From Priapulus caudatus (taxonomy: Eukaryota; Priapulida; Priapulimorpha; Priapulimorphida; Priapulidae): a DNA stretch of 36,726 nucleotides. Location: positions 562,905 to 599,630 of the forward strand of contig NW_014577217.1 of assembly GCF_000485595.1 (NCBI RefSeq), in the 5' to 3' direction. Below are positions 3,157 to 36,726 of this stretch, piece after piece. Under the pieces are notes generated by a model. The model had not been told where the DNA came from. It saw only the letters and a program-made list of their open reading frames with translations, and ran no database searches. Made by a program: the position numbers and the translations under genes. Within the stretch, counting starts at the first letter, position 1. Each line of letters starts with the position of its first letter.

Positions 3157-4008
3157 GACCATGGTTCGATGAATATTTAGAAGTATATGGCAAAACACGC
3201 GTTACTGTGCCATACAAGACGGACCATGGTTCGATGAATATTTAGAAGTATATGGCAAAACACGCGTTACTGTGCCATACAAGACGGACCTTCTTTCAGT
3301 AAAGATTTAGAAGTATATGGCAAAACACGCGTTACTGTGCCATACAAGACGGACCGCGGTTCGATGAAGATTTAGAAGTATATGGCAAAACACGCGTTGC
3401 TGTGCCATACAAGACGGACCATGGTTCGATGAAGATTTAGAAGTATATGGCAAAACACGCGTTATTACTGTGCCATACAAGACGGACCATGGTTCGATGA
3501 ATATTTAGAAGTATATGGCAAAACACGCGTTGCTGTGCCATACAAGACGGACCATGGTTCGATGAATATTTAGATGTATGTGGCAAAGCACGCGTTACTG
3601 TGCCATACAAGACGGACCATGGTTCGATGAAGATTTAGAAGTATATGGCAAAACACGCGTTATTACTGTGCCATACAAGACGGACCATGGTTCGATGAAT
3701 ATTTAGAAGTATGTGGCAAAACACGCGTTACTGTGCCATACAAGACGGACCGCGGTTCGATGAAGATTTAGAAGTATATGGCAAAGCACGCGTTGCTGTG
3801 TCGTACGAGACGAGCCCTAGTTCCATGAAGATTCAGAAGTATATGGCAAAGCGCTCGTTACTGTGCCATACAAGACCGACCGTGGTTTGATGAAGATTTA
3901 GAAGTATATATGGCAAAACACGCGTTACTGTGCCATACAGGACGGACCGCGGTTCGATGAAGATTTAGAAGTATATGGCAAAGCACGCGGTGCTGTGTCG
4001 TACGAGAG
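3157..4008 (+). repeat. Tandem array of ~65-bp unit, clean copy
   Basis: About 13 units of 65 bp. Each contains CCATGGTTCGATGA, ATTTAGAAGTATATGGCAAA and ACACGCGTTACTGTGCCATA. Units are close to identical, and a three-base TTA expansion recurs in some (GCGTTATTACTG). There are no unique spacers between units, so this is a satellite-type array, not a CRISPR array. Confidence 0.92.
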
Positions 4009-4616
4009 AGAACGTAACGCGGGATCCATCGCGATAATAAGTAAGGCGATGTGGTAGACCAGGCGATTGGATTGAACGATGGCTATTTGTCGCGTGAATT
4101 ATTTGTAACTGTGCGTAACGATTGTGTAGTATCCGGCGGATTGCTGATCCCCATTGTCGAGTTATATTGCGATAAATAAATCAGACATACACTTCCCTCG
4201 TCTGTCGCCTCAATTATACACAGATCCTGGTAGCTTGTGGGCGTAATTTGTTTCCTATATTTATACGTTAAAAAGACATTCATTCGTGTTCCGTCTGTGG
4301 GAACTATTCCAGGCAATACGTGATCTTTTTACCGGATCTTTTTACCTACATTACGCGTTTGGAATCTCGGGCAAATTCATATGACGTTAAAACCGATTAG
4401 AATTTAAAATCCGTAACAGATTTTGTGTGTGTTTAAAGTAGGGGGTCGGCAAAATATGGACCGTGGGCCGGGCCCGAATCTAATAATCTGTCCGGTCCGT
4501 CATTGCCTTCAACATATTCAAAATAAAAATTTCCTTGTTTAGAAACCATTTATTAGCAATCGATTATATTTTAAATTACGAAATCGGGACCAAAAGGCGA
4601 TGAGCCTGCGGTCATT

Positions 4617-5001
4617 ATTGGCGTCTCGTCCACTAAACCTGATATACTAATAAGCATGGCGCGCAGACGCAGCGGTGGCGGCGACGTCGTAGATGTTCAC
4701 GCGCGTAAATTCACGCATCGCTAATGAACGCGTTATTCTGCGTCCTGTTACACACACAGGTTGACACGCACATTACTAGCCATTGATTTTACGTGTATAG
4801 TACTTTTCTTGGAACACCCGACGTTTTCACGCGAACGGTCCATAAAGTCACGTACCATTGCGCCAATGTTCAAACCAAGCGCCGACAGAGCTTTATTGGA
4901 ACGCGGCCAGAGAAATATTTGCCCCTTGTGTGGGGGCGGGCCATGAGTTGAAGATTGAGATGAAAAGGTCCAACTAAACAACATACTTTCCTTTGAAATT
5001 C
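4617..5001 (+). repeat. Internal segment of the palindrome, right copy (direct orientation)
   Basis: This is the cleaner partner of 261-677, in the same orientation although the flanking arms are inverted. The junctions are GTCATT/ATTGGCG on the left and GAAATT/CTTAGCTACC on the right. No inverted repeats or target duplications are obvious at the ends, so it looks like a simple inversion in one arm rather than a separate transposon. Confidence 0.75.
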
Positions 5002-5236
5002 TTAGCTACCGGACGCTTCGGCGCACCTCCGCCATCGTCTACAATGAAGTCGCTATAAGCAGGTGTTATGATCGCGCCTGTTGAGACCATTTAGCGAAGC
5101 TCTCCGGAGAAATAACACGTGAAACTGTCCAGCGCTGCCAATGCGACAGCGGAAGCTTCCCAGTTTCCTGCTGTGACACCATTAACAACGAGTCAGTGGG
5201 TGGCCGAGCTCGCGTACTAGCTGTTGCCTACGCTAA

Positions 5237-12436: not shown

Positions 12437-12612
12437 ATGTACACACACACACACACACACACCGCCCACACACACGAGCGCACATACGTGCACGTGCACG
12501 CCCGTACACGCACATGCGTACACACGCACCCGCGCACCCGCACAAATACTCCCGCGCGCGCTCATACACACACACACGCACGCACGCACGCGCACACACA
12601 CACACACACACA
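12437..12612. repeat. (CA)n compound microsatellite
   Basis: CA/CG-rich alternating tract. The same tract reappears as the first sequence after the N gap at 20218, marking the left edge of the duplicated region. Confidence 0.93.
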
Positions 12613-13588
12613 CTCATGCACGCACGCACAAATTTCCCTAGTATAGCCCGACGCGGCTGTGAGACGAAGTGTCTCTGCACGTGAACGCCGTAAATATCAT
12701 CTACATGACCGTTCCTAGCCAAGCGCTTTCCGTGAAACATAGGTTCTTCTCAGGTTCCTCTTGTGTAGGTCTCAGGTGCCTCTCCGCGTGTACAGGTCAC
12801 GGCACCACTATCACCGAGTAGCTAGGCTTCAAGCAAAAAGGTGCAAGCGCGGGGAACGTTACTTCGACGTCAACATAATTATGTCACTGCATGCATGTGT
12901 CGGCCGCTGATTGTTGTTGTTGTTTTTGTTGCCGCGATTCCTAGTTCGCGCGCGATTCCAGCGCGAGGTTTTATAGAGTGTTTACATGCTGGTAATGCAA
13001 TCCCCACACGCGATGAAGCCACCTCACACAGTCGCGTTTTTGTAGAGCTGATTCACCAAGGATGTGTTGCAGTGTTTAGTTATTAGAGCGAGTTATTAAA
13101 ACACTATTAACCTCTCGTTGTGAACGATCCCGCACCCTATCTCCACCCCCTGGACGGCAAAACAGAATTAGGATCTCGTAAGTGAGCCATTTATACGCCA
13201 TGTTTTTCAAAGTGTACTCACTTTTCTTGTTTGCCGCGGGCTCAGCGGTAGATAAACATTCAGATCGTTCGGCCATGCTCACTTCTAAGGATAAATGTAG
13301 CCATGCGAACCTGTATAATTTTATTTGACGTTAGGTTGGAAGATGCTTTGACGATAGGTTGTTATGCGCGTTACGTTGTGCCGGTGTTAAAACAGGAAAC
13401 TGCAGATCCAGTTATGTTTACAGTTACTCATTCAAATTCTCAGTCAAACTGTGAGATATCAGAAGTATAAATATCTAAATCGCGAATAGACGTAAAATTC
13501 TATGTGTACCGTGCAAATATATGGCAACGTGAAAAGCAAAAATTTACATTTCAGTGTGCATCGTGCACTGGTTAAAATTGCGTAGGCG

Positions 13589-13623
<35 letters not shown>

Positions 13624-14041
13624 GTTATTATTATATATATATATGTTTAGAATATATATGTATTATGTATGTGTGTATGTATGCGTCGTAAGCGTGCGTA
13701 CGACGGAAAGAGTCGTGTGGTGAGTGGCTGGTGGTCAGCCTCGTAAAAAAACATTACTACTTTTACCATTATTACTGTAAAAAATTACAGCACAAAAACG
13801 CAATGATCTGGTGAATGTGTGATGTTATACAGAGAGCTAATGTCCATCACGAGTGCAATTTTGATAACGCTTTTGTGATATCTCGCGTTCAAAGTGGCAA
13901 TTAACGAGTGACGAGCGAGCGATTCGTGACGAAATATCTCATTAAAAATGCAGTCGCGAGCCCGATAGAAAATTTACTGCAAGATTCTTTATCATCGGCG
14001 CTGTGCGTAACTCCGCGGCAGCATGAATGCTGTGCTCTGCC
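12590..14041 (+). repeat. Duplicated block A, copy 1
   Basis: Matches 20258-21716 in direct orientation from the CACTCATG beside the (CA)n tract to the shared TGTGCTCTGCC. By eye I see a handful of differences, such as a 4-bp difference near 12785, an (ATT)n length change near 13595 and a 6-bp indel near 13720. It contains an (ATT)n tract at about 13591-13623. I find no exon in it. Confidence 0.92.
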
Positions 14042-14043
14042 TG

Positions 14044-16580
14044 AAAATGTTTCTGTTCTCCTAGTTGGCCTGACGATTAACTGCCAGCAATATCTAGGTC
14101 AACTACATAAGAACCAATCCTGCATGCATCTATCCAACATGCGCAGTATGGGGACCTGTCTCTTTATAGATGCCTTTGCAACTCTGATCGATGGAACGAT
14201 AGACATAATGATGTAAAATTGTCACAGTTGCCTACGTGGAGCTGGAACTATCTCTATGAGATAGAGCGATGCAAGACGTTCCGGGAACAACAATTGAGGC
14301 GCGCACTAAACTATGTCCTTGTGCTTGTTATGCTAGTGTAAAACCACAATTATACAATAAAAAGGTCACCATTTCATCGCTGATATTTTCGCAATAGTAC
14401 GTAATCATAGGATCGCATCGTTAGTTATGCATCATTATCGAAAGAAGGTTATCCCTAGGCTTTCTTAAATGAAAAACACTCATTGAAATACACTTTTCAG
14501 TCAAGAGGAAGAAGAGAGTAATACCATCTGTATAGCAACTGCATAGAACCTACCGCTTCTCACATTTATTGACTCCAAGAACATATGTCAGCATAAATTG
14601 GCTGATTGGCTGATTGGGTGAATAAATTAACAGTCGTATAATCCACGTTCCAACACGCACATATTTAATTATTAAAAGAAAAGATGGTGACAGAGCGATA
14701 AACCCTCTAATCGTTTATCGTTATATTAGACTTCATGTTCAGCAGCACAGGCTGACCAATGATAATCCGGCACTCTTGGGACCAGAGCCAGGACGGACCA
14801 GTGGGCTCACCGGACCATCAGAAGTCTATGCTAAATATGCTAACCTCAGATACCGCCTATACATTAGCTATAGGCCTATATACACACCTCACGCTAACTC
14901 AATATCAGAGAACGCATCACAATCGAACATACTCGATGCATCGTATCGCGATGCCGATGACTATACAGCGAACTATAAATATCTCTGTTGTACGTCATGA
15001 ATATCTGGTCTACTAATTCATTATCTAGGATGAGCTTGTGATTGATCTATACATGTGCATTATGTATGTAAACGCAGCCAACTTTATGAAAGTTGTAAAC
15101 GTATAGAGTTCTAAGAACGATAAGATCCTCTCTGCCAAATAGCGTGTAGTATAATAGCAACAAATCAACGGGGATTGAATCAGAATATTATATCTGTATA
15201 CTCGGCTTACAAGTGGCTTTCAATGCCAAAACCAACTTACAATCTACAGAATTATTTTTATGCGCACACCACTTGAGGATTACCTGATTTAAAACAGCTA
15301 TGCATTTTTTATACGCATTTTTTATCCGAATTTGTTCTACTCTTCGTCTAGTGTCCTGCAAATCCTGTAAATGTTTGGTATTACTTCGGTATCAGATACC
15401 TAAAACCAATTGATATAGGCCTACTGTATATAATTTAATGTATGCATATTTATTACATTCGTTCCCGTCAGTTTCTTAGTTTTCGTTGTCTCTATATATA
15501 CAATCACACTATATAGACACGCTATCGTGTTAGCTGTGCCATGTGCGAGCCTTACTGTGACAAACGTAGTAACACGGACGCCCAAGCACACGGGAACTAT
15601 ACAATTACTTTCGATGTTGAATGTGGGTAGAGTCCCTTTATAGAGATCTATAAAGGGAAATAGAGGAACGACTATTAAGGGACAATAGACGCAGCAAGAC
15701 TTTATAGAGATCTATACGGCAACATAGCGAGACCTCAGCAAAGAAATTTATATGCAGCCTGACACTATAGCGACCCTAGCGGTAGCTGTAGGATCCTTTT
15801 CCACACGAAGTAGTAGGAACGGGGCTGTAAAGCACAGATATGATACTTGATTAAAATACAAATTAAAATCAAAATGCAAATTAATCATACCGTGTGAGGT
15901 AATAATTAAACGTAACGATGATCCTCTATCTACTATAATTTTGCAAAAACCATTATCAATAGCAATGACCTCATCACGGGATTGAAATGATAGTCGATAT
16001 TTCATATTCACAAGGAGACAAACAGCAGGTTACAGTTACATGTCTTGGGAGCAGAGAACAACGAACAAAAATGTCGGCTTCTTGCGTGGCGCCCAAAACA
16101 AAGATTGCAGAGCGGCGAGGTGGGGGAGCGTAGGGTGTGGAGAGGGAGGCGGAGGAACCATTAAAATATTAATTCATCCACTATTTTGCGCAGTTCGCTG
16201 TTTTTGGCCCCCTGTTAAAAAATCCTGGCTACGCCACTGAGGAGGGACAACCTATTGTCTTTTCGTGAACAGTAAAAACGTTTGAATAAATATTATTAAT
16301 TGTCAACCGAGGTACATCGATGTTATAACCAAAAATATGAAATTTAGAATAATTGTAATTTTCTCTGACTATGTGATGAATCATTGACCAATTTTTAGAG
16401 GAAGCACTGAAATCAGGCACGCTTCAATTTAACACGTTTATTCTTCACACAATTTCATGCGTTCCTATTACCAGGCAAAGTAAACTCACGAAAGGGCGCC
16501 ACTCTATCGTGCTAACGTACTATACTTGTGAACGACTGCTATGCACGCACCTGGCTTTCATGCATCAATGTGTGCATACA
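14044..16580 (+). repeat. Duplicated block B, copy 1
   Basis: Matches 21718-24233 as reverse complement. More substitutions and small indels are visible between the two B copies than in blocks C or D. It contains a transposon end (CAGTGGCGTAGCCAGG, minus strand, outer edge at 16239) and a short palindrome around TTTATAGAGATCTATAAA at about 15638. No gene recognised. Confidence 0.92.
16090..16239 (-). mobile_element. Transposon end, CAGTGGCGTAGCC type (partial)
   Basis: On the minus strand the sequence starts CAGTGGCGTAGCCAGGATTT at 16239 and runs into a G-rich stretch. This terminal motif is widespread at the ends of non-autonomous DNA transposons in invertebrates. I cannot find the other end, so the extent is approximate. 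The second copy starts at 22055. Confidence 0.4.
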
Positions 16581-16581
16581 T

Positions 16582-19064
16582 TCGCCGTAGGGAGCATAAA
16601 TGATGCACTACGAAATCCTTTACGGGTACTTCTGTCAGCGTTAGATAATATATAATTATAGGAGTAGCGCGGGAATTCAAGTTTACAAACAATTTCAGAT
16701 TTTCAGATTTTGACTGATAATGCTTACGTCCAGGAAGCACATTACGAGTAGCAACACAAAAGCAACATTTTGCAAACAATGAAACTGAAATTACAAGGTA
16801 TAGTTATTACAACTTTATATGGTTAACGGAAACGCTAAAATGCGTGATGATAATTACTCTAATGCCGGCTGCATTTTGCTGAGCTATTTATGAGATGAGT
16901 ATATCGCGGTCTCGTGGGATGCATCCATCGAAATGCCGTTTTCGGTATAGAGCTGCTTTTACAGACGCACAGAGGGTTATGTCTCGTCGTTACGATCCTG
17001 CATTTACGCTACAACAAATTCCCACGTTGTCGGTAAAGAGAATCATTAATGGCACCTATAGTCAAGATGTCATTTACGGATCATTTGCAAACGTGTGCGA
17101 TGGGTTTCCGAACACAGTGAATGCTCTCGATATGAGATTGGCCGGTCGCACAACGTAACTATGATAGCTGCATCACAATGTTGGCTAAACTCTCCGACGG
17201 CAGCGGTATTATAGTGGTGTATCGCTATTCGTAATGTAACCCGCAAGTGCTTCGCGGGTGTGCCGTTAAAATTCCATGCAAATACCTAGTGAACAAACGT
17301 CTGTTTTAAAGACGCGTACGCGTTGCCAAACAAAAATTTCGTCTAAAATTAACGTTCACGCGTTGTACGCTTGCACTTCCCTTCAAGGTTTCGTCTAGAA
17401 AGTATAACTATTGGAATGAATGCTATCCATGCAATTTAATTTTTGCCGTTCCTTGAGAGGTCGTGTCGTCTCCAATAACTGCACGCGCGCGTGTGTGTGT
17501 GTATGTGTGCGTGCGTGCGTGTGCGTGTGCGTGCACGTGTTTGCGTGTGTACACAGATTACCGGCATCTCACAAACCTCTGTGAAATTCGATTTTTGAGT
17601 TGGTATTTACTTTGAGGTAGAACTGGCATGCTACTGACTTGTACAGTTTCCATTTCAATGGTAACAATCATGTATAGTAAAGTTTAATATATACGGGGTA
17701 TCGACTATGATTTGTTGCAAAGGTTTACGAAGGAATTCATCTTTAAGCAGAATCATACAGTGGTACAATAAAGAATTATAATAATGACCAATTACGCTAT
17801 TAGTTAATTGCGGAAGCACCGGATGATCACATTTGAAATATTGTTATTCCGGTTCTGCTTATACTGTTGACACCACCCCTTGTCGCAAATTACTTAATAG
17901 CAATAAATGTAGCCTATGCAATTTCCCACCACTATTCAGTGACTGATGCCAGGTATGAAAATATCAGAAGTATGATAACTCTACGTCCGGTATAAATTAT
18001 ACCCGCTTGCGCAATTCGTTAATCTTCATTAAATTGTCCCTACGAGTGCTTTACTACTTTAAGCCACGTACAGCTGTTGTTATACCTATAGTTACGATTC
18101 CGCAGAAATTGATGGTTGCTAGAAACCTGGACGGGCGGATGCAATCGGAATCAGCACTATTTACCTAATACATCTAGCGTAACAGTCCGTGATTCTCGGT
18201 AAATACAGAATCATATATTATCACGCCGCCACCATTTCAAAATTACAAAATAGCACTAACACTCTCTCCCTCTTGCAGGTGGCCCCACTCTCCCCCTCCT
18301 CTTCTATATAATCAATTAATCATAGGTATACGAACGGTCATATATGTAGGCCTTGGTGATAATGGATGTTTCTCGAATGGAAAGATAGAAGTTCCTCCAT
18401 TTTTAGACCGTGGCGGTTAAGAATAACGTTCGATCGAACTGAATATCATTGAATTTAGTCAGCCTATAATTAAGGACATCTACAGCTCATCTCGTCAAAC
18501 AGAACAGCACACACATCTAATCAATGACTGTGTAAAAAAAAATCGAAAACGTACAGAGTGTAACCTAGAGTTACACAAATCTGTTCAATACGCTGGTATT
18601 CTACAGTAAAATGTCTACATTATTGAGTACCAAGTTGGTACGTAAATCAGATGTCGCTGAAATTACTTTTACCGTTGCTACAGCGTAAGGGATGCACACA
18701 CTCACACGCACGCGCGCACACACACACGTACACGCACGCATACATGTACTTATGCGTTACACTGTATATAGGAGGCTGCGTTTATGTGATAGAACGAAGT
18801 AACGTAAAATGGTAAAACTAGTAACCTAGCTTTAAAGATTTACGGCGTTATTATGTACGCCTAAAATATTCGTACTCGGAGGGGGGTGCGAGAAACCAAA
18901 TGGTTTTCTTGGTGATATCCTTGTAATACAACCTAAATGAACCAGATCGTGCGATTTCACGGGCTCGCTACAACAACAGCAAAACAGGCTTTCCATGCAT
19001 TTCGATGATGATTCCTGTTTTGTTGTTCCTGAAATGTAAAACGTACTAAACGTCAAATTCCAAG
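16582..19064 (+). repeat. Duplicated block C, copy 1 (empty site for the LTR)
   Basis: Matches 24236-26912 as reverse complement, apart from a 194-bp insertion in the second copy. All segments I compared base by base were identical. It holds CA/GT-rich tracts at about 17486-17550 and 18698-18740. An 87-codon frame at 16895-17158 is intact in both copies but resembles no family, and identity of the copies is no evidence that it is coding. Confidence 0.92.
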
Positions 19065-19156
19065 CATAAAAATAGACAGGCGCTAATGTTTTCAAGCGCA
19101 AGCAGCTCTAAAGTGTCACCTCTGAGGAGCCTCTCGCTGCATGCGAAGATGCAACA

Positions 19157-19441
19157 TGTTCTGCTAGCATCTATGACAAATACGACATACGCATATATAC
19201 GCTCTCCTATGACACTATTTGTCATAGGAAGATTCTTCCTATGCCAAATATTGGCGAGTCAACTTTGTTCCGCTTTACAGCTGAAATTCACTGCTTGCGT
19301 TCATGTTAGCGCTCCTAAACTCCTATGATGCGCACAATACATACAACAATATTTGTCATAGGAAGAATCTTCCTATGACAAATAGTGTCATAGGAGAGCG
19401 TATATGCGTATGTCGTATTTGTCATAGAAGCTAGCAGAACA
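19157..19441. mobile_element. Fold-back element, copy 1
   Basis: Long inverted arms run inward from TGTTCTGCTAGC (19157) and GCTAGCAGAACA (ending 19441), each about 80 bp. Each arm carries a palindrome built on CATAGGAAGA/TCTTCCTATG. The loop of about 115 bp is unique. The arms include GGAGAGCGTATATG and ATGACAAAT, faintly like the CAGGAGCGTATAATGACAAA family. No coding capacity. Confidence 0.8.
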
Positions 19442-20156
19442 GGCTGGAAAATGATACATCCTTGCTGGTGTCATGCACTGTCTCGGCTTGTAAATAGCTC
19501 TCTCACTTTAGGCACGCACGTTAAGCGCTACTGGCAAGTAGTAACTATCCGGTATTCGTTTTAAATAGCCGAAGTACAGCTTGTATTTCGTGTACTAAGC
19601 TCAACCTCCGTATTCGCAAGATTAGCAAAATCTATCAGATCTTTCGTCGTTGCTTCGAAGCATGATAAACGGCTAATGGGCAGGTGGATGGCAACGGCTG
19701 CGAAAACCACACCTTTCAGGCGAAAATGTGTGCGCTAGCAAATTCCTCTTGACTTCCCATATCTAAGACTCTTTGAAACGTAGATCCATGACATAAAATC
19801 ACGTGTGTATTTTCGGATTAACATAAATGAAGAGATCCACTCCCGTAATCCTGATTTGATTGACAAGCGGTCTTAATTTTCGATATTCTTGCGGGATCGA
19901 TTGTAATCAGTTTACATGTTTTACATTATTAAATTTTGCTTCACTCGCGCGAGATTGGCTCAAGGTTCACTGGTCGTGTGTGTTTTTATCACTAAACAGT
20001 GACGTCAGTGTAGTATGCCATTGCTTTCTAAAAGTGATTAAGATTAGATGGGTTTTGCCAAACCTGTCTGTCGGCGAAACTGCGAGCAAACAAAATGGTA
20101 ACTGTAGAATCAGTAGGGAAAGGCACCCCACCTGACAAAGACGTCGGTCAGAATGC

Positions 20157-20158
<2 letters not shown>

Positions 20159-20207
<49 letters not shown>
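20159..20207. repeat. (TA)n microsatellite at the contig end
   Basis: Pure TA repeat ending directly at the N run. Confidence 0.97.
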
Positions 20208-20217
20208 NNNNNNNNNN
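20208..20217. other. Assembly gap (10 N)
   Basis: Ten unknown bases between a (TA)n and an (AC)n tract. Both neighbours are typical contig-breaking microsatellites. The sequence to the right restarts at the left boundary of the sequence that has just ended. Confidence 0.99.

Positions 20218-20283
<66 letters not shown>
20218..20283. repeat. (AC)n microsatellite at the contig start
   Basis: Pure AC repeat directly after the gap. It corresponds to the CA tract at about 12590. Confidence 0.97.
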
Positions 20284-20285
<2 letters not shown>

Positions 20286-21716
20286 ATGAACGCACGCACA
20301 AATTTCCCTAGTATAGCCCGACGCGGCTGTGAGACGAAGTGTCTCTGCACGTGAACGCCGTAAATATCATCTACATGACCGTTCCTAGCCAAGCGCTTTC
20401 CGTGAAACATAGGTTCTTCTCAGGTTCCTCTTGTGTAGGTCTCAGGTGCCTCTCCTTGCGCGTGTACAGGTCACGGCACCACTATCACCGAGTAGCTAGG
20501 CTTCAAGCAAAAAGGTGCAAGCGCGGGGAACGTTACTTCGACGTCAACATAATTATGTCACTGCATGCATGTGTCGGCCGCTGATTGTTGTTGTTGTTTT
20601 TGTTGCCGCGATTCCTAGTTCGCGCGCGATTCCAATCGCGAGGTTTTATAGAGTGTTTACATGCTGGTAATGCAATCCCCACACGCGATGAAGCCACCTC
20701 ACACAGTCGCGTTTTTGTAGAGCTGATTCACCAAGGATGTGTTGCAGTGTTTAGTTATTAGAGCGAGTTATTAAAACACTATTAACCTCTCGTTGTGAAC
20801 GATCCCGCACCCTATCTCCACCCCCTGGACGGCAAAACAGAATTAGGATCTCGTAAGTGAGCCATTTATACGCCATGTTTTTCAAAGTGTACTCACTTTT
20901 CTTGTTTGCCGCGGGCTCAGCGGTAGATAAACATTCAGATCGTTCGGCCATGCTCACTTCTAAGGATAAATGTAGCCATGCGAACCTGTATAATTTTATT
21001 TGACGTTAGGTTGGAAGATGCTTTGACGATAGGTTGTTATGCGCGTTACGTTGTGCTGGTGTTAAAACAGGAAACTGCAGATCCAGTTATGTTTACAGTT
21101 ACTCATTCAAATTCTCAGTCAAACTGTGAGATATCAGAAGTATAAATATCTAAATCGCGAATAGACGTAAAATTCTATGTGTACCGTGCAAATATATGGC
21201 AACGTGAAAAGCAAAAATTTACATTTCAGTGTGCATCGTGCACTGGTTAAAATTGCGTAGGCGGTATTATTATTATTATTATTATTATTATTGTTATTAT
21301 TATACATATATATGTATAGAATATATATGTATTATGTATGTGTGTATGTATGCGTCGTAAGCGTGCGTACGACGGAAAGAGTCGTGTGGTGAGTATACGT
21401 GGCTGGTGGTCAGCCTCGTAAAAAACCATTACTACTTTTACCATTATTACTGTAAAAAATTACAGCACAAAAACGCAATGATCTGGTGAATGTGTGATGT
21501 TATACAGAGAGCTAATGTCCATCACGAGTGCAATTTTGATAACGCTTTTGTGATATCTCGCGTTCAAAGTGGCAATTAACGAGTGACGAGCGAGCGATTC
21601 GTGACGAAATATCTCATTAAAAATGCAGTCGCGAGCCCGATAGAAAATTTACTGCAAGATTCTTTATCATCGGCGCTGTGCGTAACTCCGCGGCAGCATG
21701 AATGCTGTGCTCTGCC
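20258..21716 (+). repeat. Duplicated block A, copy 2
   Basis: Direct repeat of 12590-14041. The homology stops exactly after TGTGCTCTGCC; the next base (G, 21717) fits neither partner cleanly and is followed by block B in inverse orientation. It holds an (ATT)n tract at about 21266-21303. Confidence 0.92.
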
Positions 21717-21717
21717 G

Positions 21718-24233
21718 TGTATGCACACATTGATGCATGAAAGCCAGGTGCGTGCATAGCAGCCGTTCACAAGTATAGTACGTTAGCACGATAGAGTGGC
21801 GCCCTTTCGTGAGTTTACTTTGCCTGGTAATAGGAACGCATGAAATTGTGTGAAGAATAAACGTGTTAAATTGAAGCGTGCCTGATTTCAGTGCTTCCTC
21901 CAAAAATTGGTCAATGATTCATCACATATTCAGAGAAAATTACAATTATTATAAATTTCATATTTTTGGTTATAACATCGATGTACCTCGGTTGACAATC
22001 ATACTTATTCAAACGTTTTTACTGTTTACGAAAAGACAATAGGTTGTCCCTCCTCAGTGGCGTAGCCAGGATTTTATAACAGGGGGGCAAAAACAGCAAA
22101 CTGCGCAAAATAGTGGATGAATTAATATTGTAATGGTTCCTCCGCCTCCCTCTCCACACCCTACGATCCCCCACCTCGCCGCTCTGCAATCTTTGTTTTG
22201 GGCGCCACGCAAGAAGGCGACATTTTTGTTCGTTGTTCTCTGCTCCCAAGACATGTAACTGTAACCTGCTGTTTGTCTCCTTGTGAATATGAAATATCGA
22301 CTATCATTTCAATCCCGTGATGAGGTCATTGCTATTGGTAATGGTTTTTGCAAAATTATAGTAGATAGAGGATCATCGTTACGTTTAATTATTACCTCAC
22401 ACGGTATGATTAATTTGCATTTTGATTTTAATTTGTATTTTAATCAAGTATCATATCTGTGCTTTACAGCCCCGTTCCTACTACTTCGTGTGGAAAAGGA
22501 TCCTACAGCTACCGCTAGGGTCGCTAGTGTCAGGCTGCATATAAATTTCTTTGCTGAGGTCTCGCTATGTTGCCGTATAGATCTCTATAAAGTCTTGCTG
22601 CGTCTATTGTCCCTTAATAGTCGTCCCTTTATTTCCCTTTATAGATCTCTATAAAGGGACTCTACCCACATTCAACATCGAAAGTAATTGTATAGTTCCC
22701 GTGTGCTTGGGCGTCCGTGTTACTACGTTTGTCACAGTAAGGCTCGCACATGGCACAGCTAACACGATAGCGTGTCTATAGTGTGATTGTATATATAGAG
22801 ACGAACGGAAACTAAGAAACTGTCTGGAACGAATGTAATAAACATGCATACATTAAATTATATACAGTACATCAATTGGTTTTAGGTATCTGATACCGAA
22901 GTAATACCAAACATTTACAGGATTTGCAGGACACTAGACGAAGAGTAGAACAAATTCGGATAATTGTATAAAAAATGCATAGCTGTTTTAAATCAGGTAA
23001 TCTTCAAGTGGTGTGCGCATAAAAATAATTCTGTAGATTGTAAGTTGGTTTTGGCATTGAAAGCCACTTGTAAGCCGAGTATACAGATATAATATTCTGA
23101 TTCAATCCCCGTTGATTTGTTGCCATTATACTACACGCTATTTGGCAGAGAGGATCTTATCGTTCTTAGAACTCTATACGTTTACAACTTTCATAAAGTT
23201 GGCTGCGTTTACATACATAATGCACATGTATAGATCAATCACAAGCTCCTCCTAGATAATGAATTAGTAGACCAGATATTCATGACGTACAACAGAGATA
23301 TTTATAGTACGATGTATAGTCATCGGCATCGCGATACGATATGCATCGAGTATGTTCGATTGTGATGCGTTCTCTGATATTGAGTTAGCGTGAGGTGTAT
23401 ATATAGGCCTATAGCTAATGTATAGGCGGTATCTGAGGTTAGCATATTTAGCATAGACTTCTGATGGTCCGGTGAGCCCACTGGTCCGTCTTGGCTCTGG
23501 TCCCAAGAGTGCCGGAATATCATTGGTCAGCCTGTGCTGCTGAACATGAAGTCTAATATAACGATAAACGATTAGAGGGTTTATCGCTCTGTCACCGTCT
23601 TTTCTTTGAATAATTAAATATGTGCGCGTTGGAACGTGGATTATACGACTGTTAATTTATTCACCCAATCAGCCAATCAGCCAATTTATGCTGACATATG
23701 TTCTTGGAGTCAATAAATGTGAGAAGCGGTAGGTTCTACGCAGTTGCTACAGATGGTATTACTCTCTTCTTCCTCTTGACTGAAAAGTGTATTTCCATGA
23801 GTGTTTTTCATTTAAGAAAGCCAAGGTATAACCTTCTTTCGATAATGATGCATAACTAACGATGCGATCCTATGATTACGTACTATTGCGAAAATATCAG
23901 CGATGAAATGGTGACCTTTTTATTGTATAATTGTGGTTTTACACTAGCATAACAAGCACAAGGACATAGCTTAGTGCGCGCCTCAATTGTTGTTCCCGGA
24001 ACGTCTTGCATCGCTCTATCTCATGATAATTCCAGCTCCACGTAGGCAACTGTGACAATTTTACATCATTATGTCTATCGTTCCATCGATCAGAGTTGCA
24101 AAGGCATCTATAAAGAGACAGGTCCCCATACTGCGCATGTTGGATAGATGCATGCAGGATTGGTTCTTATGTAGTTGACCTAGATACTGCTGGCAGTTAA
24201 TCGTCAGGCCAACTAGGAGAACAGAAACATTTT
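21718..24233 (-). repeat. Duplicated block B, copy 2, inverted in place
   Basis: Reverse complement of 14044-16580. At the right junction the homology ends in ACAGAAACATTTT, followed by two bases (AA) present in neither partner, then block C inverted. By eye this pair shows roughly 2-3 % substitutions plus small indels. Confidence 0.92.
22055..22250 (+). mobile_element. Transposon end, CAGTGGCGTAGCC type, second copy
   Basis: CAGTGGCGTAGCCAGGATTT begins at 22055 and is followed by a run of six G. Counterpart of the minus-strand copy ending at 16239. The far boundary is not identifiable. Confidence 0.4.
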
Positions 24234-24235
24234 AA

Positions 24236-26912
24236 CTTGGAATTTGACGTTTAGTACGTTTTACATTTCAGGAACAACAAAACAGGAATCATCATCGAAA
24301 TGCATGGAAAGCCTGTTTTGCTGTTGTTGTAGCGAGCCCGTGAAATCGCACGATCTGGTTCATTTAGGTTGTATTACAAGGATATCACCAAGAAAACCAT
24401 TTGGTTTCTCGCACCCCCCTCCGAGTACGAATATTTTAGGCGTACATAATAACGCCGTAAATCTTTAAAGCTAGGTTACTAGTTTTACCATTTTACGTTA
24501 CTTCGTTCTATCACATAAACGCAGCCTCCTATATACAGTGTTGTAATAGTATTGGTATAGCTATTATAAGCCAAAGACAGGCATTTCCATGGAGCGGTGT
24601 CAAGCTCTTTATTAGCATTCAAAGATGGCTATACATGGAATGCTTTCCAGCCCATGTGATCACCGGTTTACGCCTCGCACTATATTGTGGCGTATCACTA
24701 CGCTAGTGCTTGTGAACGCATATCACCACAAGTGTAACGCATAAGTACATGTATGCGTGCGTGTACGTGTGTGTGTGCGCGCGTGCGTGTGAGTGTGTGC
24801 ATCCCTTACGCTGTAGCAACGGTAAAAGTAATTTCAGCGACATCTGATTTACGTACCAACTTGGTACTCAATAATGTAGACATTTTACTGTAGAATACCA
24901 GCGTATTGAACAGATTTGTGTAACTCTAGGTTACACTCTGTACGTTTTCGATTTTTTTTTACACAGTCATTGATTAGATGTGTGTGCTGTTCTGTTTGAC
25001 GAGATGAGCTGTAGATGTCCTTAATTATAGGCTGACTAAATTCAATGATATTCAGTTCGATCGAACGTTATTCTTAACCGCCACGGTCTAAAAATGGAGG
25101 AACTTCTATCTTTCCATTCGAGAAACATCCATTATCACCAAGGCCTACATATATGACCGTTCGTATACCTATGATTAATTGATTATATAGAAGAGGAGGG
25201 GGAGAGTGGGGCCACCTGCAAGAGGGAGAGAGTGTTAGTGCTATTTTGTAATTTTGAAATGGTGGCGGCGTGATAATATATGATTCTGTATTTACCGAGA
25301 ATCACGGACTGTTACGCTAGATGTATTAGGTAAATAGTGCTGATTCCGATTGCATCCGCCCGTCCAGGTTTCTAGCAACCATCAATTTCTGCGGAATCGT
25401 AACTATAGGTATAACAACAGCTGTACGTGGCTTAAAGTAGTAAAGCACTCGTAGGGACAATTTAATGAAGATTAACGAATTGCGCAAGCGGGTATAATTT
25501 ATACCGGACGTAGAGTTATCATACTTCTGATATTTTCATACCTGGCATCAGTCACTGAATAGTGGTGGGAAATTGCATAGGCTACATTTATTGCTATTAA
25601 GTAATTTGCGACAAGGGGTGGTGTCAACAGTATAAGCAGAACCGGAATAACAATATTTCAAATGTGATCATCCGGTGCTTCCGCAATTAACTAATAGCGT
25701 AATTGGTCATTATTATAATTCTTTATTGTACCACTGTATGATTCTGCTTAAAGATGAATTCCTTCGTAAACCTTTGCAACAAATCATAGTCGATACCCCG
25801 TATATATTAAACTTTACTATACATGATTGTTACCATTGAAATGGAAACTGTACAAGTCAGTAGCATGCCAGTTCTACCTCAAAGTAAATACCAACTCAAA
25901 AATCGAATTTCACAGAGGTTTGTGAGATGCCGGTAATCTGTGTACACACGCAAACACGTGCACGCACACGCACACGCACGCACGCACACATACACACACA
26001 CACGCGCGCGTGCAGTTATTGGAGACGACACGACCTCTCAAGGAACGGCAAAAATTAAATTGCATGGATAGCATTCATTCCAATAGTTATACTTTCTAGA
26101 CGAAACCTTGAAGGGAAGTGCAAGCGTACAACGCGTGAACGTTAATTTTAGACGAAATTTTTGTTTGGCAACGCGTACGCGTCTTTAAAACAGACGTTTG
26201 TTCACTAGGTATTTGCATGGAATTTTAACGGCACACCCGCGAAGCACTTGCGGGTTACATTACGAATAGCGATACACCACTATAATACCGCTGCCGTCGG
26301 AGAGTTTAGCCAACATTGTGATGCAGCTATCATAGTTACGTTGTGCGACCGGCCAATCTCATATCGAGAGCATTCACTGTGTTCGGAAACCCATCGCACA
26401 CGTTTGCAAATGATCCGTAAATGACATCTTGACTATAGGTGCCATTAATGATTCTCTTTACCGACAACGTGGGAATTTGTTGTAGCGTAAATGCAGGATC
26501 GTAACGACGAGACATAACCCTCTGTGCGTCTGTAAAAGCAGCTCTATACCGAAAACGGCATTTCGATGGATGCATCCCACGAGACCGCGATATACTCATC
26601 TCATAAATAGCTCAGCAAAATGCAGCCGGCATTAGAGTAATTATCATCACGCATTTTAGCGTTTCCGTTAACCATATAAAGTTGTAATAACTATACCTTG
26701 TAATTTCAGTTTCATTGTTTGCAAAATGTTGCTTTTGTGTTGCTACTCGTAATGTGCTTCCTGGACGTAAGCATTATCAGTCAAAATCTGAAAATCTGAA
26801 ATTGTTTGTAAACTTGAATTCCCGCGCTACTCCTATAATTATATATTATCTAACGCTGACAGAAGTACCCGTAAAGGATTTCGTAGTGCATCATTTATGC
26901 TCCCTACGGCGA
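24236..26912 (-). repeat. Duplicated block C, copy 2, inverted in place
   Basis: Reverse complement of 16582-19064 with one insertion at 24542-24735. The left edge is CTTGGAATTTGACG and the right edge CTCCCTACGGCGA. One base (T at 16581) of the copy-1 B/C border is missing here. Confidence 0.92.
24537..24735. mobile_element. Solo-LTR-like insertion (189 bp) with 5-bp target duplication
   Basis: The insert at 24542-24730 begins TGTAATAG and ends CACCACA, the TGT...ACA borders of retrotransposon long terminal repeats. It is flanked by AGTGT at 24537-24541 and 24731-24735. The allelic site in block C copy 1 (about 18750-18765) has the uninterrupted ACAGTGTAACG with a single AGTGT. It contains TATAAG near its start and a CTTTATTAG motif, compatible with promoter and polyadenylation signals. 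No internal coding region or second LTR is present, so I call it a solo LTR. A short non-autonomous transposon with 5-bp duplications is the alternative. Confidence 0.8.
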
Positions 26913-27004
26913 CATAAAAATAGACAGGCGCTAATGTTTTCAAGCGCAAGCAGCTCTAAAGTGTCACCTCTGAGGAGCCTCTCGCTGCATGCGAAGATGC
27001 AACA

Positions 27005-27289
27005 TGTTCTGCTAGCATCTATGACAAATACGACATACGCATATATACGCTCTCCTATGACACTATTTGTCATAGGAAGATTCTTCCTATGCCAAATATT
27101 GGCGAGTCAACTTTGTTCCGCTTTACAGCTGAAATTCACTGCTTGCGTTCATGTTAGCGCTCCTAAACTCCTATGATGCGCACAATACATACAACAATAT
27201 TTGTCATAGGAAGAATCTTCCTATGACAAATAGTGTCATAGGAGAGCGTATATGCGTATGTCGTATTTGTCATAGAAGCTAGCAGAACA
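27005..27289. mobile_element. Fold-back element, copy 2
   Basis: Same as 19157-19441, with arms from TGTTCTGCTAGC to GCTAGCAGAACA. Confidence 0.8.
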
Positions 27290-28004
27290 GGCTGGAAAAT
27301 GATACATCCTTGCTGGTGTCATGCACTGTCTCGGCTTGTAAATAGCTCTCTCACTTTAGGCACGCACGTTAAGCGCTACTGGCAAGTAGTAACTATCCGG
27401 TATTCGTTTTAAATAGCCGAAGTACAGCTTGTATTTCGTGTACTAAGCTCAACCTCCGTATTCGCAAGATTAGCAAAATCTATCAGATCTTTCGTCGTTG
27501 CTTCGAAGCATGATAAACGGCTAATGGGCAGGTGGATGGCAACGGCTGCGAAAACCACACCTTTCAGGCGAAAATGTGTGCGCTAGCAAATTCCTCTTGA
27601 CTTCCCATATCTAAGACTCTTTGAAACGTAGATCCATGACATAAAATCACGTGTGTATTTTCGGATTAACATAAATGAAGAGATCCACTCCCGTAATCCT
27701 GATTTGATTGACAAGCGGTCTTAATTTTCGATATTCTTGCGGGATCGATTGTAATCAGTTTACATGTTTTACATTATTAAATTTTGCTTCACTCGCGCGA
27801 GATTGGCTCAAGGTTCACTGGTCGTGTGTGTTTTTATCACTAAACAGTGACGTCAGTGTAGTATGCCATTGCTTTCTAAAAGTGATTAAGATTAGATGGG
27901 TTTTGCCAAACCTGTCTGTCGGCGAAACTGCGAGCAAACAAAATGGTAACTGTAGAATCAGTAGGGAAAGGCACCCCACCTGACAAAGACGTCGGTCAGA
28001 ATGC

Positions 28005-28005
<1 letters not shown>

Positions 28006-28050
<45 letters not shown>
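28006..28050. repeat. (TA)n microsatellite
   Basis: TA tract at the right end of block D. An AAT-rich run follows at about 28178-28230. Confidence 0.95.
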
Positions 28051-28058
<8 letters not shown>

Positions 28059-28487: not shown

Positions 28488-28578
28488 ATTCATGATGGTA
28501 CTCATATGCCTTATATTCAGTGTTCTTTCAACGATAGACCAATACGAAAATTTTGCACAGAAATCTCTATTCTGGATG
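28488..28578 (+). CDS. KCNQ1: KCNQ1-like channel exon 2: end of S1 and S1-S2 loop
   Basis: This partial coding exon belongs to a voltage-gated K+ channel of the plasma membrane. After one base completing a codon from exon 1, it reads FMMVLICLIFSVLSTIDQYE and then NFAQKSLFWM, closely matching human KCNQ1 exon 2. The exon is 91 bp, the length I recall for human exon 2, and ends in phase 0 at ATG. The acceptor is a good polypyrimidine tract (TGTTTTCTCTCTTGCAG) and the donor is GTATGT. It encodes the C-terminal half of the first voltage-sensor helix and the loop to S2. The upstream exon with the N-terminus and early S1 is not found anywhere in the window. Confidence 0.95.
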
Positions 28579-29594: not shown

Positions 29595-29682
29595 CAGGGG
29601 CGGATCCAGAGGGGGGGTCGAGGGGGTCCGGACCCCCCCTTTATACCACAAAAAATAGAAGAAGCATACACGCACGCACGCG

Positions 29683-29744
<62 letters not shown>

Positions 29745-30115
29745 CACACACACACAGACACTTCTCTTATATTGTCTCCATAAAAAAATCTTGTTTAACG
29801 CTAGTTTTTCTGATAAAGATTTACTTATATATATGTAAATTCGTTATAAAAACCTAGAAATGGGCAAAGAGGGGTCCGCAGGCGTCCGGGGGACCGGATC
29901 TGATACATTTGTGCATTCTATACATCAAAATTACTGCTCAGATGCTCTCAGAATGCACCAATTTAAAAAAAAAAATATTGGGGAGGTCCCCTAAACCCCC
30001 CCCCCCCTAAGTGGCCTTCGGCAGCTTTTTAAAACACCAGAAAAAGTAAGCAGGAAAAGGTGCCCTTTATTTCTTCCTGGACACCCCCTTTTCAAAAATA
30101 CTGGATCCGCCCCTG
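29595..30115. mobile_element. Non-autonomous DNA transposon with CAGGGGCGGATCCAG ends
   Basis: Terminal inverted repeats CAGGGGCGGATCCAG (29595) and CTGGATCCGCCCCTG (ending 30115), with G-rich/C-rich subterminal runs, enclose 521 bp including a (CA)n tract. CACTAC occurs close outside both ends but not at an exact target duplication. The terminal motif is typical of hAT-like non-autonomous elements abundant in marine invertebrates. No transposase is present. Confidence 0.7.
29667..29758. repeat. (CA)n microsatellite inside the transposon
   Basis: CGCACG, GCGC and then pure CA repeats. Both strands give spurious frames. Confidence 0.95.
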
Positions 30116-33696: not shown

Positions 33697-33754
33697 GTGA
33701 TATCAGGAGCGTATAATGACAAATATATTTGTCATTATACGCTCCTGGTGATAT
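33697..33754. mobile_element. Minimal CAGGAG palindromic element: 44 bp, 7-bp target duplication
   Basis: The element at 33704-33747 is a perfect palindrome. CAGGAGCGTATAATGACAAA is followed by TATA and the exact inverse. Perfect 7-bp direct repeats GTGATAT flank it (33697-33703 and 33748-33754). It lies about 290 bp upstream of exon 3a. Other members in the window are at 8692, 9057 and 11456. Confidence 0.92.
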
Positions 33755-34043
33755 GGCGCTAGGATGACCTAGAAGTACTCGATTTTTATCGCTTTATATC
33801 TCGGCATAGGAACATCGTAGAGACAAGCGCGGTTGATCTTATATTGGCTAGCTATGACTCCTGCATAATATTCCGGTAGAGAAGTATCAAAATAAGGTAG
33901 GTAAACTTTATTAATTTTGCTGAAACGACACCATGGTTTTCCTATTTCAGCATTGTACGCTCTGGGGTTAATGGGCTCTTGATATCAGTGATTTCTTCCC
34001 CTTGTTGTGGAAAATAACAGTAGTTCTCACGATTTCTCTGCAG

Positions 34044-34170
34044 GAAATAGTGCTTGTGTCATTCTTCGGGGTAGAATACTCAGTGCGCATATGGTCCTCG
34101 GGGTGTAGAAGCAAATACATGCATCTGAAGGGTCGCATTAAATTTGCCAGAAAACCGATATGTATCATAG
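34044..34170 (+). CDS. KCNQ1: KCNQ1-like exon 3a: S2 and S2-S3 linker, first alternative
   Basis: A 127-bp exon reading [17 protein letters not shown] and then [17 protein letters not shown] plus ARKPICII, ending with one base (G) of the next codon. This matches S2 and the S2-S3 linker of KCNQ1 (human exon 3, 127 bp from memory). Residues equivalent to human E160, F167 (charge-transfer centre), E170 and R174 are all present, as are the basic linker residues equivalent to R190 and R195/K196. Acceptor TTTCTCTGCAG, donor GTAAGT (strong). It begins in phase 0 after exon 2 and ends in phase 1. A second version of the same exon follows 602 bp downstream. Confidence 0.95.
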
Positions 34171-34191
34171 GTAAGTTGTTTTACTCAAAAT

Positions 34192-34719
34192 GCGCTTAAT
34201 TTGGTTTCCACCGGGCAGTCCTGCTACATTAAGGTAAATGAGCCAATGGACTACTATAGCGGACTGAAGACTATAGTATCAGGATACTATAACGTTCAGT
34301 CAACTGTTAACTATTTATAAAGAAAAGCTACCAATGTACAAGCGTCGTAACAATAGTGATAGTACAACATGTAATTACTTATATATAATGCTGACTATTA
34401 TGGTTCACACAGGTATAGCAGATAAGACTTACCTGGTTAATATTCCTGTAATTCCAACCATGTAACCAGCGGTTTCAATTCGATTGCAATCATTCGATTG
34501 ATAATCGATTCAAATCTGCATTGTCTGTCTCTGATTTCGCTAATTTTGATCGTCAGCTCGCGTCGACCCTGCTTCATCCCGGCGTCCTACTCTCTTAATT
34601 CCCTAAAAATTCAATGCTGAAATGGCATGATGGCTGAATGGGCTGAGTGTGTGCTTGAGATTGTATTCCGAACGCAGTTCCTCAGCAGTACTGCCCGGTG
34701 TGTAAACCAAACTAAGCGC
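34192..34719. promoter_or_regulatory. Inverted repeat bridging the intron between exons 3a and 3b
   Basis: The left arm at 34192-34225 (GCGCTTAATTTGGTTTCC, then ACCGGGCAGTCCTGCT) is complementary to the right arm at 34684-34719. About 30 of 34 positions pair and there is a 2-nt bulge. The arms lie 21 nt after the 3a donor and 53 nt before the 3b acceptor, enclosing about 458 nt. In RNA this would form a long stem joining the two exon borders. Alternatively the arms are the terminal repeats of a small transposon. GCGCTTAA on the left and CTAAGCGC on the right could be a TTAA-type target duplication in a palindromic site. Both could be true. Confidence 0.75.
34265..34303. repeat. Short hairpin in the 3a-3b intron
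   Basis: TATAGTATC, AG, GATACTATA forms a perfect small hairpin, extended by outer CTGAA/TTCAG pairing. Confidence 0.55.
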
Positions 34720-34772
34720 TTTTTAATTGATAATCTCTCGTTCTTACCATGCTGTCTTGTATTCTTCTACAG

Positions 34773-34899
34773 GAGATTGTATTAGTATCGTTCCTGGGTT
34801 TGGAGTACCTAGTGCGACTATGGGCGGCTGGATGCCGCAGTAAATATATGCGCGTAAGAGGGAGGTTGAAATTTGCAAAAAAACCTATAGCCGTACTGG
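34773..34899 (+). CDS. KCNQ1: KCNQ1-like exon 3b: S2 and S2-S3 linker, second alternative
   Basis: A 127-bp exon with the same phases as 3a (starts phase 0, ends phase 1). It reads [17 protein letters not shown], then [17 protein letters not shown] plus AKKPIAVL. It is identical to 3a at 28 of 42 residues, with diverged third codon positions, so the duplication is not recent. E160, E170 and R174 equivalents are kept, but the F167 equivalent is Leu. The R195 equivalent is Lys. Acceptor TATTCTTCTACAG, donor GTAAGAG. Both copies are open and well spliced, so I regard 3b as a functional alternative exon rather than a relic. Confidence 0.94.
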
Positions 34900-36151: not shown

Positions 36152-36327
36152 ATTTAATCGTGGTGATTGCCTCATTGGTGGTTTTGGTGGTTGGGTCTAA
36201 GGGGCAGGTGTTTGCAACATCGGCTATCAGAGGAGTCCGATTCCTGCAGATCTTGCGCATGTTGCATGTTGACCGGCAGGGAGGAACGTGGCGCCTCCTG
36301 GGATCAGTCGTTTTCATTCATCGTCAG
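36152..36327 (+). CDS. KCNQ1: KCNQ1-like exon 4: S3, S4 voltage sensor and S4-S5 linker start
   Basis: A 176-bp exon. Its first two bases complete the Asp codon begun by the last G of exon 3. It then reads [40 protein letters not shown] and [19 protein letters not shown]4 has the KCNQ1 charge pattern R, R, Q, R, H, R (human R228 to R243), which separates it from KCNQ2-5 (RMIRMDRR). Human KCNQ1 splits this region into two exons (79 + 97 bp, from memory) whose sum is 176; here they are one exon, as in KCNQ2. Acceptor CCCGTTGCAG, donor GTACTTG, ends in phase 0. The next exon (S5, pore) lies beyond the window. Confidence 0.96.
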
Positions 36328-36403
36328 GTACTTGCACGATGCCAATGTGTACGTGGGAGGAGAGAAAAACGCAGCGAGTGAAAGCTGAATGTGTATAAGC
36401 CTC

Positions 36404-36726
36404 GTCTACACGACGAACCTTAACTCGAGTTAAGCTAACTCGAGTTAAGCGTTAACTCGAGTTAGCGATTATGTAGCGTCTACACGACGAACCTTAACTC
36501 GAGTTAAGCTAACTCGAGTTAAGCGTTAACTCGAGTTAGCGATTATGTAGCGTCTACACGACAACACCCGAACTCGAGTTAAGCTAACTCGAGTTAAGCG
36601 TTAACTCGAGTTAGCGATTATGTAGCGTCTACACGACAACACCCGAACTCGAGTTAAGCTAACTCGAGTTAAGCGTTAACTCGAGTTAGCGATTATGTAG
36701 CGTCTACACGACAACACCCGAACTCG
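36404..36726. repeat. 74/75-bp tandem array with nested TTAACTCGAGTTAA palindromes
   Basis: Units start GTCTACACGAC at 36404, 36478, 36552, 36627 and 36702. The first two are 74 bp and have GAACCTTAACTCGAG. Later ones are 75 bp and have AACACCCGAACTCGAG. Each holds three copies of a CTCGAG-centred palindrome. The array begins 77 bp after the exon 4 donor and continues past the window end. Confidence 0.93.

What the first reader, a model, noticed from the sequence alone, without database searches (positions are those of the whole stretch)
34044..34899. Tandem mutually exclusive exons for S2 and the S2-S3 linker in a KCNQ1-like channel
Exons 3a and 3b are both 127 bp with identical phases, strong splice sites and 67 % identical peptides. 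Their use must be exclusive. Joining 3a to 3b gives TAA at the 24th codon after the junction, and skipping both joins ATG to AT-TTA-A, giving ATG ATT TAA. So only one-of-two splicing yields a channel. I do not recall this arrangement being described for KCNQ1.
Basis: partly seen in the sequence, partly recalled or inferred. Interest (0 to 1): 0.9.

Follow-up and report, generated by a model that had tools for sequence, protein, structure and literature searches.

The report
Swappable voltage-sensor exons in KCNQ1-like gene
An animal potassium-channel gene of the KCNQ1 type carries two versions, side by side, of the exon for part of its voltage sensor, and the reading frame allows only one at a time, so splicing may let the animal choose between two voltage sensors.

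Summary
Exons 3a (34044-34170) and 3b (34773-34899) are both 127 bp, with equal phase and GT-AG borders, between single exons 2 and 4 of a KCNQ1-type gene. Only 2-3a-4 and 2-3b-4 stay open. The copies share 29 of 43 residues but 79 of 127 bases, with saturated synonymous sites, pN/pS 0.24 and no shared intron sequence: old duplicates kept by selection, not alleles. Two additions. (1) Both copies keep the voltage-sensor acids and PIP2 residues, but 3b has Leu where 3a and every KCNQ1-5 alignment shown have the Phe plug (F167) of the charge-transfer centre. (2) The ends of the 3a-3b intron form a strong predicted stem that could bring the 3a donor within about 38 nt of the 3b branch site and hinder 3a-3b joining; a transposon remnant is not excluded. 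No RNA and no relatives could be examined. Six open-library searches listed no such KCNQ1 exons by title or abstract start. It is a new member of a known kind.

The parts
28488..28578 (+). exon 2, 91 bp, S1 (FMMVLICLIFSVLSTIDQYENFAQKSLFWM after one codon-completing base), ends in phase 0
   Evidence: AG/GT borders; aligned to PDB KCNQ1
34044..34170 (+). exon 3a, 127 bp, S2 and S2-S3 loop, Phe at the F0 plug position
34171..34772 (+). 602-nt intron between 3a and 3b; folds more stably than 20 of 20 shuffles (z -3.65)
34187..34225 (+). 5' arm of the predicted RNA stem, starts 16 nt after the 3a exon end
34684..34724 (+). 3' arm of the predicted RNA stem, ends 48 nt before exon 3b
34743..34747 (+). 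candidate branch site of 3b (CTTAC, A at 34746)
   Evidence: consensus match only
34773..34899 (+). exon 3b, 127 bp, S2 and S2-S3 loop, Leu at the F0 plug position
36152..36327 (+). exon 4, 176 bp, S3 and S4 with KCNQ1-type R-R-Q-R-H-R pattern; equals human exons 4 and 5 joined (human exon sizes recalled)

Best explanation
This is the voltage-sensor part of a KCNQ1 gene, probably of an invertebrate (inference), in which exon 3 was duplicated in tandem long ago, and both copies are kept as mutually exclusive exons. Shown in sequence: two homologous 127-bp exons of equal phase between single exons 2 and 4; frame arithmetic that makes double inclusion and double skipping non-productive; constraint on the coding sequence of the pair. 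Inferred: each is spliced in some cells or stages; 3a-3b products are destroyed or do not form. Two inferred safeguards: nonsense-mediated decay, and a stem joining the two ends of the 3a-3b intron that could place the 3a donor about 38 nt from the 3b branch site, too close for a spliceosome. Inferred effect: both isoforms keep the acidic counter-charges, the PIP2 residues and most of the calmodulin-facing loop, but 3b replaces the aromatic plug of the charge-transfer centre by Leu and alters the S2-S3 loop. The isoforms would then differ in voltage dependence, in the speed of the voltage sensor and perhaps in Ca/calmodulin coupling, rather than in whether they conduct.
For: Exon anatomy and frames. 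Best PDB match KCNQ1 at about 3e-64 for both isoforms, against KCNQ2 at 6e-47 (3a) and 1e-45 (3b); Ion_trans for both. pS 0.89, pN 0.21, pN/pS 0.24 (bootstrap 0.14-0.37). A neutral copy diverged to the same third-position level kept at most 17 of 42 residues in 5000 simulations against 28 observed, and stayed stop-free in 12.6%. Of 26 positions identical in two vertebrate KCNQ1 and KCNQ2, 3a keeps 22 and 3b 21. F0 is Phe in all KCNQ1-5 alignments displayed and Leu in 3b. F167 as F0 of the charge-transfer centre: PMC7069725, PMC12589563, PMC10214144 (passages). Phe-to-Leu effect in Kv1/Shaker: PMC3477161 (passages). Stem: -56 kcal/mol; among 15 pairs of 300-nt intron blocks only the two halves of this intron stand out (z -6.5, 0 of 40 shuffles).
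Against: No RNA evidence. The 3b donor is only moderate. The gene is cut by the window end and no exon 1 was found, so the pore and C-terminal domain were not seen. The species is unknown and no relative could be examined. The stem may be terminal repeats of an old transposable element, and pairing that brings splice sites together can help splicing (PMC11802352, passages). In PMC6071210 (passages) pairing in exclusive clusters was between outer and internal introns, not among internal ones, which is not the pattern here. Changing F0 can do harm: Ser at this place stops Kv1.2 trafficking and shifts Shaker by about 80 mV (PMC9169947, passages); only Tyr and Trp were near wild type in one Shaker study, and for Leu two laboratories disagree, -40 to -50 mV or near wild type (as told in PMC3477161).
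Confidence: 0.83

Rival explanations
1. One copy is a relic or a rarely used exon: the duplication is real, but only one copy (3a with the stronger donor) is spliced in practice.
For: The 3b donor matches 6 of 9 consensus bases against 8 of 9 for 3a; 3b departs from the Phe at F0 kept in every KCNQ1-5 alignment displayed.
Against: 3b has an open frame, an acceptor that scores as well as 3a's, 21 of 26 family-shared residues, and the pair has pN/pS 0.24; a neutral copy would have lost most residues. Recent loss of use cannot be excluded.
Confidence: 0.1
2. Assembly artefact: the two exons come from two alleles or two gene copies placed in series.
For: The same scaffold has a 10-N gap and, just 5' of exon 2, about 7.8 kb in two copies of 97-100% identity, partly inverted, as expected of haplotypes joined in series.
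Against: 3a and 3b share only 79 of 127 bases and no same-strand similarity beyond the exons, far from the 97-100% of the apparent haplotype copies; exons 2 and 4 are single; both exons lie right of the gap and outside the doubled stretch.
Confidence: 0.03
3. On mechanism only: the intron stem has no part in splicing. Its arms are the inverted ends of an old transposable element, and exclusivity rests on frame and decay alone or on protein regulators.
For: The window is rich in palindromes and element-like pieces; arms of about 40 bp spaced by 458 bp resemble a small inverted-repeat element; the last 60 nt before 3b hold seven UCUU/UUCU/CUCU words, against five, five and one before exons 2, 3a and 4.
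Against: No other copy of the arms in the window; no target-site duplication of 5 or more bases at any of the limits tried; arms lie next to the two splice sites whose joining must be avoided. None of this is decisive.
Confidence: 0.5
4. The exons are alternative through other means, such as an internal promoter that starts transcripts after exon 3a, not through one-of-two splicing within one pre-mRNA.
For: Not excluded by sequence; exon 1 was not found in the window with a short recalled motif.
Against: 3b begins in phase 0 after the same ATG-ending exon 2 and completes the same S1-S4 reading frame; such an explanation needs an extra promoter, for which I did not search.
Confidence: 0.03

Closest known systems
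Vertebrate KCNQ1 (Kv7.1) exon 3
   Same: Same exon borders and 127-bp length (human size recalled), S2 plus S2-S3 loop, 29-32 of 43 residues identical
   Different: Vertebrate KCNQ1 has one exon 3 (recalled); here there are two, and one lacks the F0 Phe
Tandem duplicated mutually exclusive exons of voltage-gated channels: Drosophila cacophony, Ca-alpha1D, Ca-alpha1T and slowpoke, insect para, human CACNA1A-E, invertebrate NALCN (PMC9741552, section 16 read whole)
   Same: Homologous neighbouring exons, one used per transcript, channel function kept; the paper finds most substitutions conservative (passage)
   Different: That section names calcium and sodium channels, NALCN and slowpoke; 'KCNQ' does not occur in the main text. 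I recall none that exchanges the S2 plug, and did not search for that specifically
Docking-selector mutually exclusive splicing (Dscam1 and others; PMC6071210 and PMC11802352, passages)
   Same: RNA base pairing in introns of an exclusive cluster
   Different: Here no pairing between the tested parts of the outer introns and the inner intron stands out; the pairing is between the two ends of the inner intron
Short-intron steric exclusion (described in PMC6071210, passage; alpha-tropomyosin recalled)
   Same: Would prevent joining of the two copies by bringing donor and branch site too close
   Different: The intron is 602 nt; closeness would come only from the stem, which is a prediction

Membership tests
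KCNQ1 (Kv7.1) channels | S1-S4 sequence closest to KCNQ1 within KCNQ1-5 | tested here: met
   Both isoforms about 3e-64 to KCNQ1; best KCNQ2 6e-47 and 1e-45; KCNQ3-5 weaker
KCNQ1 (Kv7.1) channels | S4 pattern with Gln at the third charge position (R R Q R H R) | tested here: met
   Exon 4 aligned to PDB KCNQ1; pattern from PMC10214144 passages
KCNQ1 (Kv7.1) channels | TTL motif at the S4-S5/S5 border and KCNQ1-type C-terminal assembly domain (PMC2597720, passages) | not testable with these tools
   Those exons lie beyond the window end
Mutually exclusive tandem duplicated exons | Adjacent homologous exons of equal length and phase | tested here: met
Mutually exclusive tandem duplicated exons | Both single-exon forms open; double and null forms not productive | tested here: met
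Mutually exclusive tandem duplicated exons | Transcripts with one and only one copy | not testable with these tools
   No RNA data on hand
Docking-selector exclusive splicing | A site in an outer intron complementary to selectors near each variable exon | tested here: not met
   14 of 15 block pairs show no excess pairing; the one that does is within the inner intron. Only six 300-nt blocks next to exons were tested, so a distant docking site would be missed
U2/U12 incompatibility | Mixed U12-type and U2-type sites | tested here: not met
   All four donors and acceptors read as U2-type GT-AG (judged by eye)
Steric exclusion by short intron | Donor of first copy too close to branch site of second | tested here: inconclusive
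   602 nt in linear sequence; about 38 nt if the predicted stem forms

The most novel reading that the evidence does not exclude
A KCNQ1 channel whose splicing swaps the plug of the gating charge-transfer centre (Phe to Leu) together with the S2-S3 loop that meets calmodulin and PIP2. This would make a natural two-state voltage sensor. Exclusivity would be secured physically by a stem closing the ends of the inner intron, so that the first donor and the second branch site cannot be used together.
Probability: 0.3. Interest if true: 0.75.

Novelty: new member of a known kind. Interest (0 to 1): 0.58.

Why it matters
[quoted passage not shown] A gene that supplies both a Phe and a Leu form by splicing would be a natural test of what the plug does in KCNQ1, whose gating through intermediate and activated states and control by KCNE, calmodulin and PIP2 are studied for long-QT syndrome. 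It would also show splicing used on the voltage sensor in a channel family for which my searches listed no such report.

Tried and rejected
Alleles in series: rejected for 3a/3b. A third exon copy, or second copies of exons 2 and 4: none seen. Docking-selector pairing with the tested parts of the outer introns: not found; I take the 12-base match 33944-33955 with 34612-34623 as chance, since the duplex test of those blocks shows no excess. U12 introns: no. tRNA or Rfam (gathering threshold) features in the window: none. Pfam hits in ten stop-to-stop ORFs chosen from the 178: none. Splicing-factor motif counts near the exons are uninformative. Exon 1: an 18-residue recalled motif gave no convincing match. 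Relatives in viral contigs (15 pattern matches, none confirmed) and prokaryote genomes (597, none confirmed): none, as expected for an animal gene. Profile libraries other than Pfam were not searched. No structure prediction was run.

Paper listings without a fitting title or abstract start: 10 papers, none opened; 2, none opened; 23, 20 listed, two read in passages: PMC2597720, PMC9989356; 0; 47, 12 listed, none opened; 11 of the 12 do not hold the word KCNQ1, so this search was weak; 1, PMC9741552, section 16 and passages read. The library holds open-licence papers only and no supplements were read, so an automatic annotation, a supplementary table or a subscription paper could already hold this exon pair.

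Full report
What is there. In the last 8.2 kb of the window lie four exons of one gene on the + strand: exon 2 (28488-28578, 91 bp), exon 3a (34044-34170, 127 bp), exon 3b (34773-34899, 127 bp) and exon 4 (36152-36327, 176 bp), all with AG before and GT after. Joined as 2-3a-4 or 2-3b-4 they give 131 codons without a stop. Both products match vertebrate KCNQ1 in the Protein Data Bank over their full length at about 3e-64, and KCNQ2 at best at 6e-47 (3a) and 1e-45 (3b); Pfam calls both Ion_trans. The human exon sizes 91, 127, 79 and 97 bp are from memory; exon 4 here equals the last two fused.

Frame. 127 is not a multiple of three. Exclusive use is what the sequence demands of a working channel; it does not show that both exons are used.

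Age and constraint. The exons share 29 of 43 residues but 79 of 127 bases; of the 29 shared residues 18 have different codons. Synonymous sites are saturated (pS 0.89), pN is 0.21, pN/pS 0.24 with a bootstrap range of 0.14-0.37. In 5000 simulations a neutral copy brought to the same third-position divergence kept at most 17 of 42 residues (median 4), against 28 observed, and 12.6% had no stop. The simulation lets only one copy change, so it is a rough guide. Similarity ends with the exons: BLAST of 527-bp stretches around each finds one same-strand match of 124 aligned bases, lying almost wholly in the exons. By identity to vertebrate KCNQ1 neither copy is clearly the older form (3a 30 and 32, 3b 31 and 29 of 43 to the two sequences compared).

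Artefact check. The scaffold has a 10-base N gap at 20208-20217, and 12563-20207 recurs as 20233-28056 at 97-100% identity, with inner blocks inverted. The two exons 3 lie outside it and are far more different from each other than those copies.

What the exon codes for. It starts at human E160 and ends in the first base of the D202 codon (numbering from the 676-residue PDB chain). It thus holds E1 (E160), F0 (F167) and E2 (E170) of the voltage sensor, the S2-S3 loop, and R181, K183 and K196 of the canonical PIP2 site (roles from passages of PMC7069725, PMC12589563 and PMC10214144). The S2-S3 peptide that interacts with calmodulin in vitro, [23 protein letters not shown] (PMC9988260, passages), lies within this exon. 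Both copies keep the three acids, the three PIP2 residues and the GCRSKY core of the loop. They differ from each other at 14 positions: 167 (3a Phe, 3b Leu), 169, 172, 175, 177, 178, 186-188, 191, 195 (3b Lys) and 199-201. Phe at F0 is present in every KCNQ alignment that was displayed: four KCNQ1 displays (three distinct sequences), five KCNQ2, one KCNQ3, two KCNQ4 and two KCNQ5. These are vertebrate proteins; no invertebrate KCNQ could be compared, so whether Leu at F0 occurs elsewhere in KCNQ is open.

What Leu at F0 might do. [quoted passage not shown] PMC9545881 (passages) reports that of 13 F290 mutants only one had a meaningful effect on gating charge. PMC9169947 (passages) shows that Ser there abolishes Kv1.2 surface expression. 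So a change in gating by 3b is likely, but its size and direction cannot be foretold, and a trafficking effect is possible.

The inner intron. The ends of the 602-nt intron between 3a and 3b are complementary: 34187-34225 with 34684-34724, 85% over 41 aligned positions. Among 40 inverted matches of at least 36 bits and span under 1 kb in the window, this is the only one with separated arms; the other 39 are palindromes matching themselves. The duplex of the first 70 and last 100 or so bases is -56 kcal/mol (500 single-base shuffles: mean -25, lowest -41). Of 2946 random 602-base segments of the window 10 did as well; by position five of these are this intron itself, shifted or on the other strand, and five fall in simple-repeat or element-like stretches near 7.9 and 29.5-30.1 kb. 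In a 1.1-kb context the arm positions pair with the other arm with mean probability 0.87. The intron folds at z -3.65 against 20 shuffles. Of 15 pairs of 300-nt blocks around these exons only the two halves of this intron pair beyond shuffles (z -6.5, 40 approximate dinucleotide shuffles; the other 14 lie between -1.0 and 1.7). With the stem formed, 16 nt separate the 3a exon end from it and 22 nt lead from it to the candidate branch A at 34746. I infer that this could bar 3a-3b joining while leaving 2-3b and 3a-4 joining possible. This is a model. Against it: pairing can also bridge splice sites and help them (PMC11802352, passages), and in the clusters surveyed in PMC6071210 (passages) pairing ran between outer and internal introns, which I tested and did not find here. 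An inverted-repeat element could leave the same pattern; no target-site duplication of 5 or more bases was found at the limits tried, and the arms have no other copy in the window, which does not settle it.

Against known kinds. Mutually exclusive tandem exons are frequent in voltage-gated channels; PMC9741552 (section 16 read) counts events in 4 of 14 human and 5 of 13 Drosophila families, centred on calcium and sodium channels, with slowpoke and NALCN; KCNQ does not occur in its main text. [quoted passage not shown] PMC2597720 (12 of 21 matching places seen) describes invertebrate KCNQ1 genes in worm, bee and sea squirt and fragments in amphioxus without such exons in what I saw. Known means of exclusion are short introns, U2/U12 mixing, decay, and docking-selector pairing (PMC6071210, passages): decay fits by frame, U2/U12 and docking-selector were tested and not met, short intron is met only through the predicted stem.

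Limits. The statement that I found no report of the pair rests on six searches of an open-licence library, one of them empty and one weak; automatic annotations were not seen.

Noticed in passing
12563-20207 and 20233-28056: Near-identical copies (97-100%) on the two sides of a 10-N gap, with inner blocks inverted: probably two haplotypes joined in series, or an inversion polymorphism; the length of the upstream intron is therefore unreliable.
   Followed up: partly
4-5233: Long inverted repeat (4-261 against 5233-5002 and 679-2283 against 4616-3150, with a direct block 261-673 against 4617-4998; 81-88%) carrying 65-72 bp minisatellite arrays; perhaps a large foldback-type element.
   Followed up: no
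29595-30115: About 0.5-kb element-like stretch with inverted ends CAGGGGCGGATCCAG and CTGGATCCGCCCCTG in the intron before exon 3a (by eye).
   Followed up: no
19157-19441 and 27005-27289: Palindromic 285-bp element (79% to its own reverse complement), present in both apparent haplotype copies.
   Followed up: no
33704-33747: Perfect 44-base palindrome about 300 bases before exon 3a.
   Followed up: no
36403-36726: 75-bp tandem repeat (4.3 copies, 98% matches) full of AACTCGAGTT palindromes, running to the window end just after exon 4.
   Followed up: no
34262-34301: Hairpin of two 19-base arms (84% complementary) inside the loop of the intron stem.
   Followed up: partly
34171-34175 and 34743-34747: The 3a donor GTAAG is complementary to the candidate 3b branch site CTTAC and pairs with it in the intron-only fold, but in the 1.1-kb context the donor's favoured partner is a nearby stretch instead.
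   Followed up: partly
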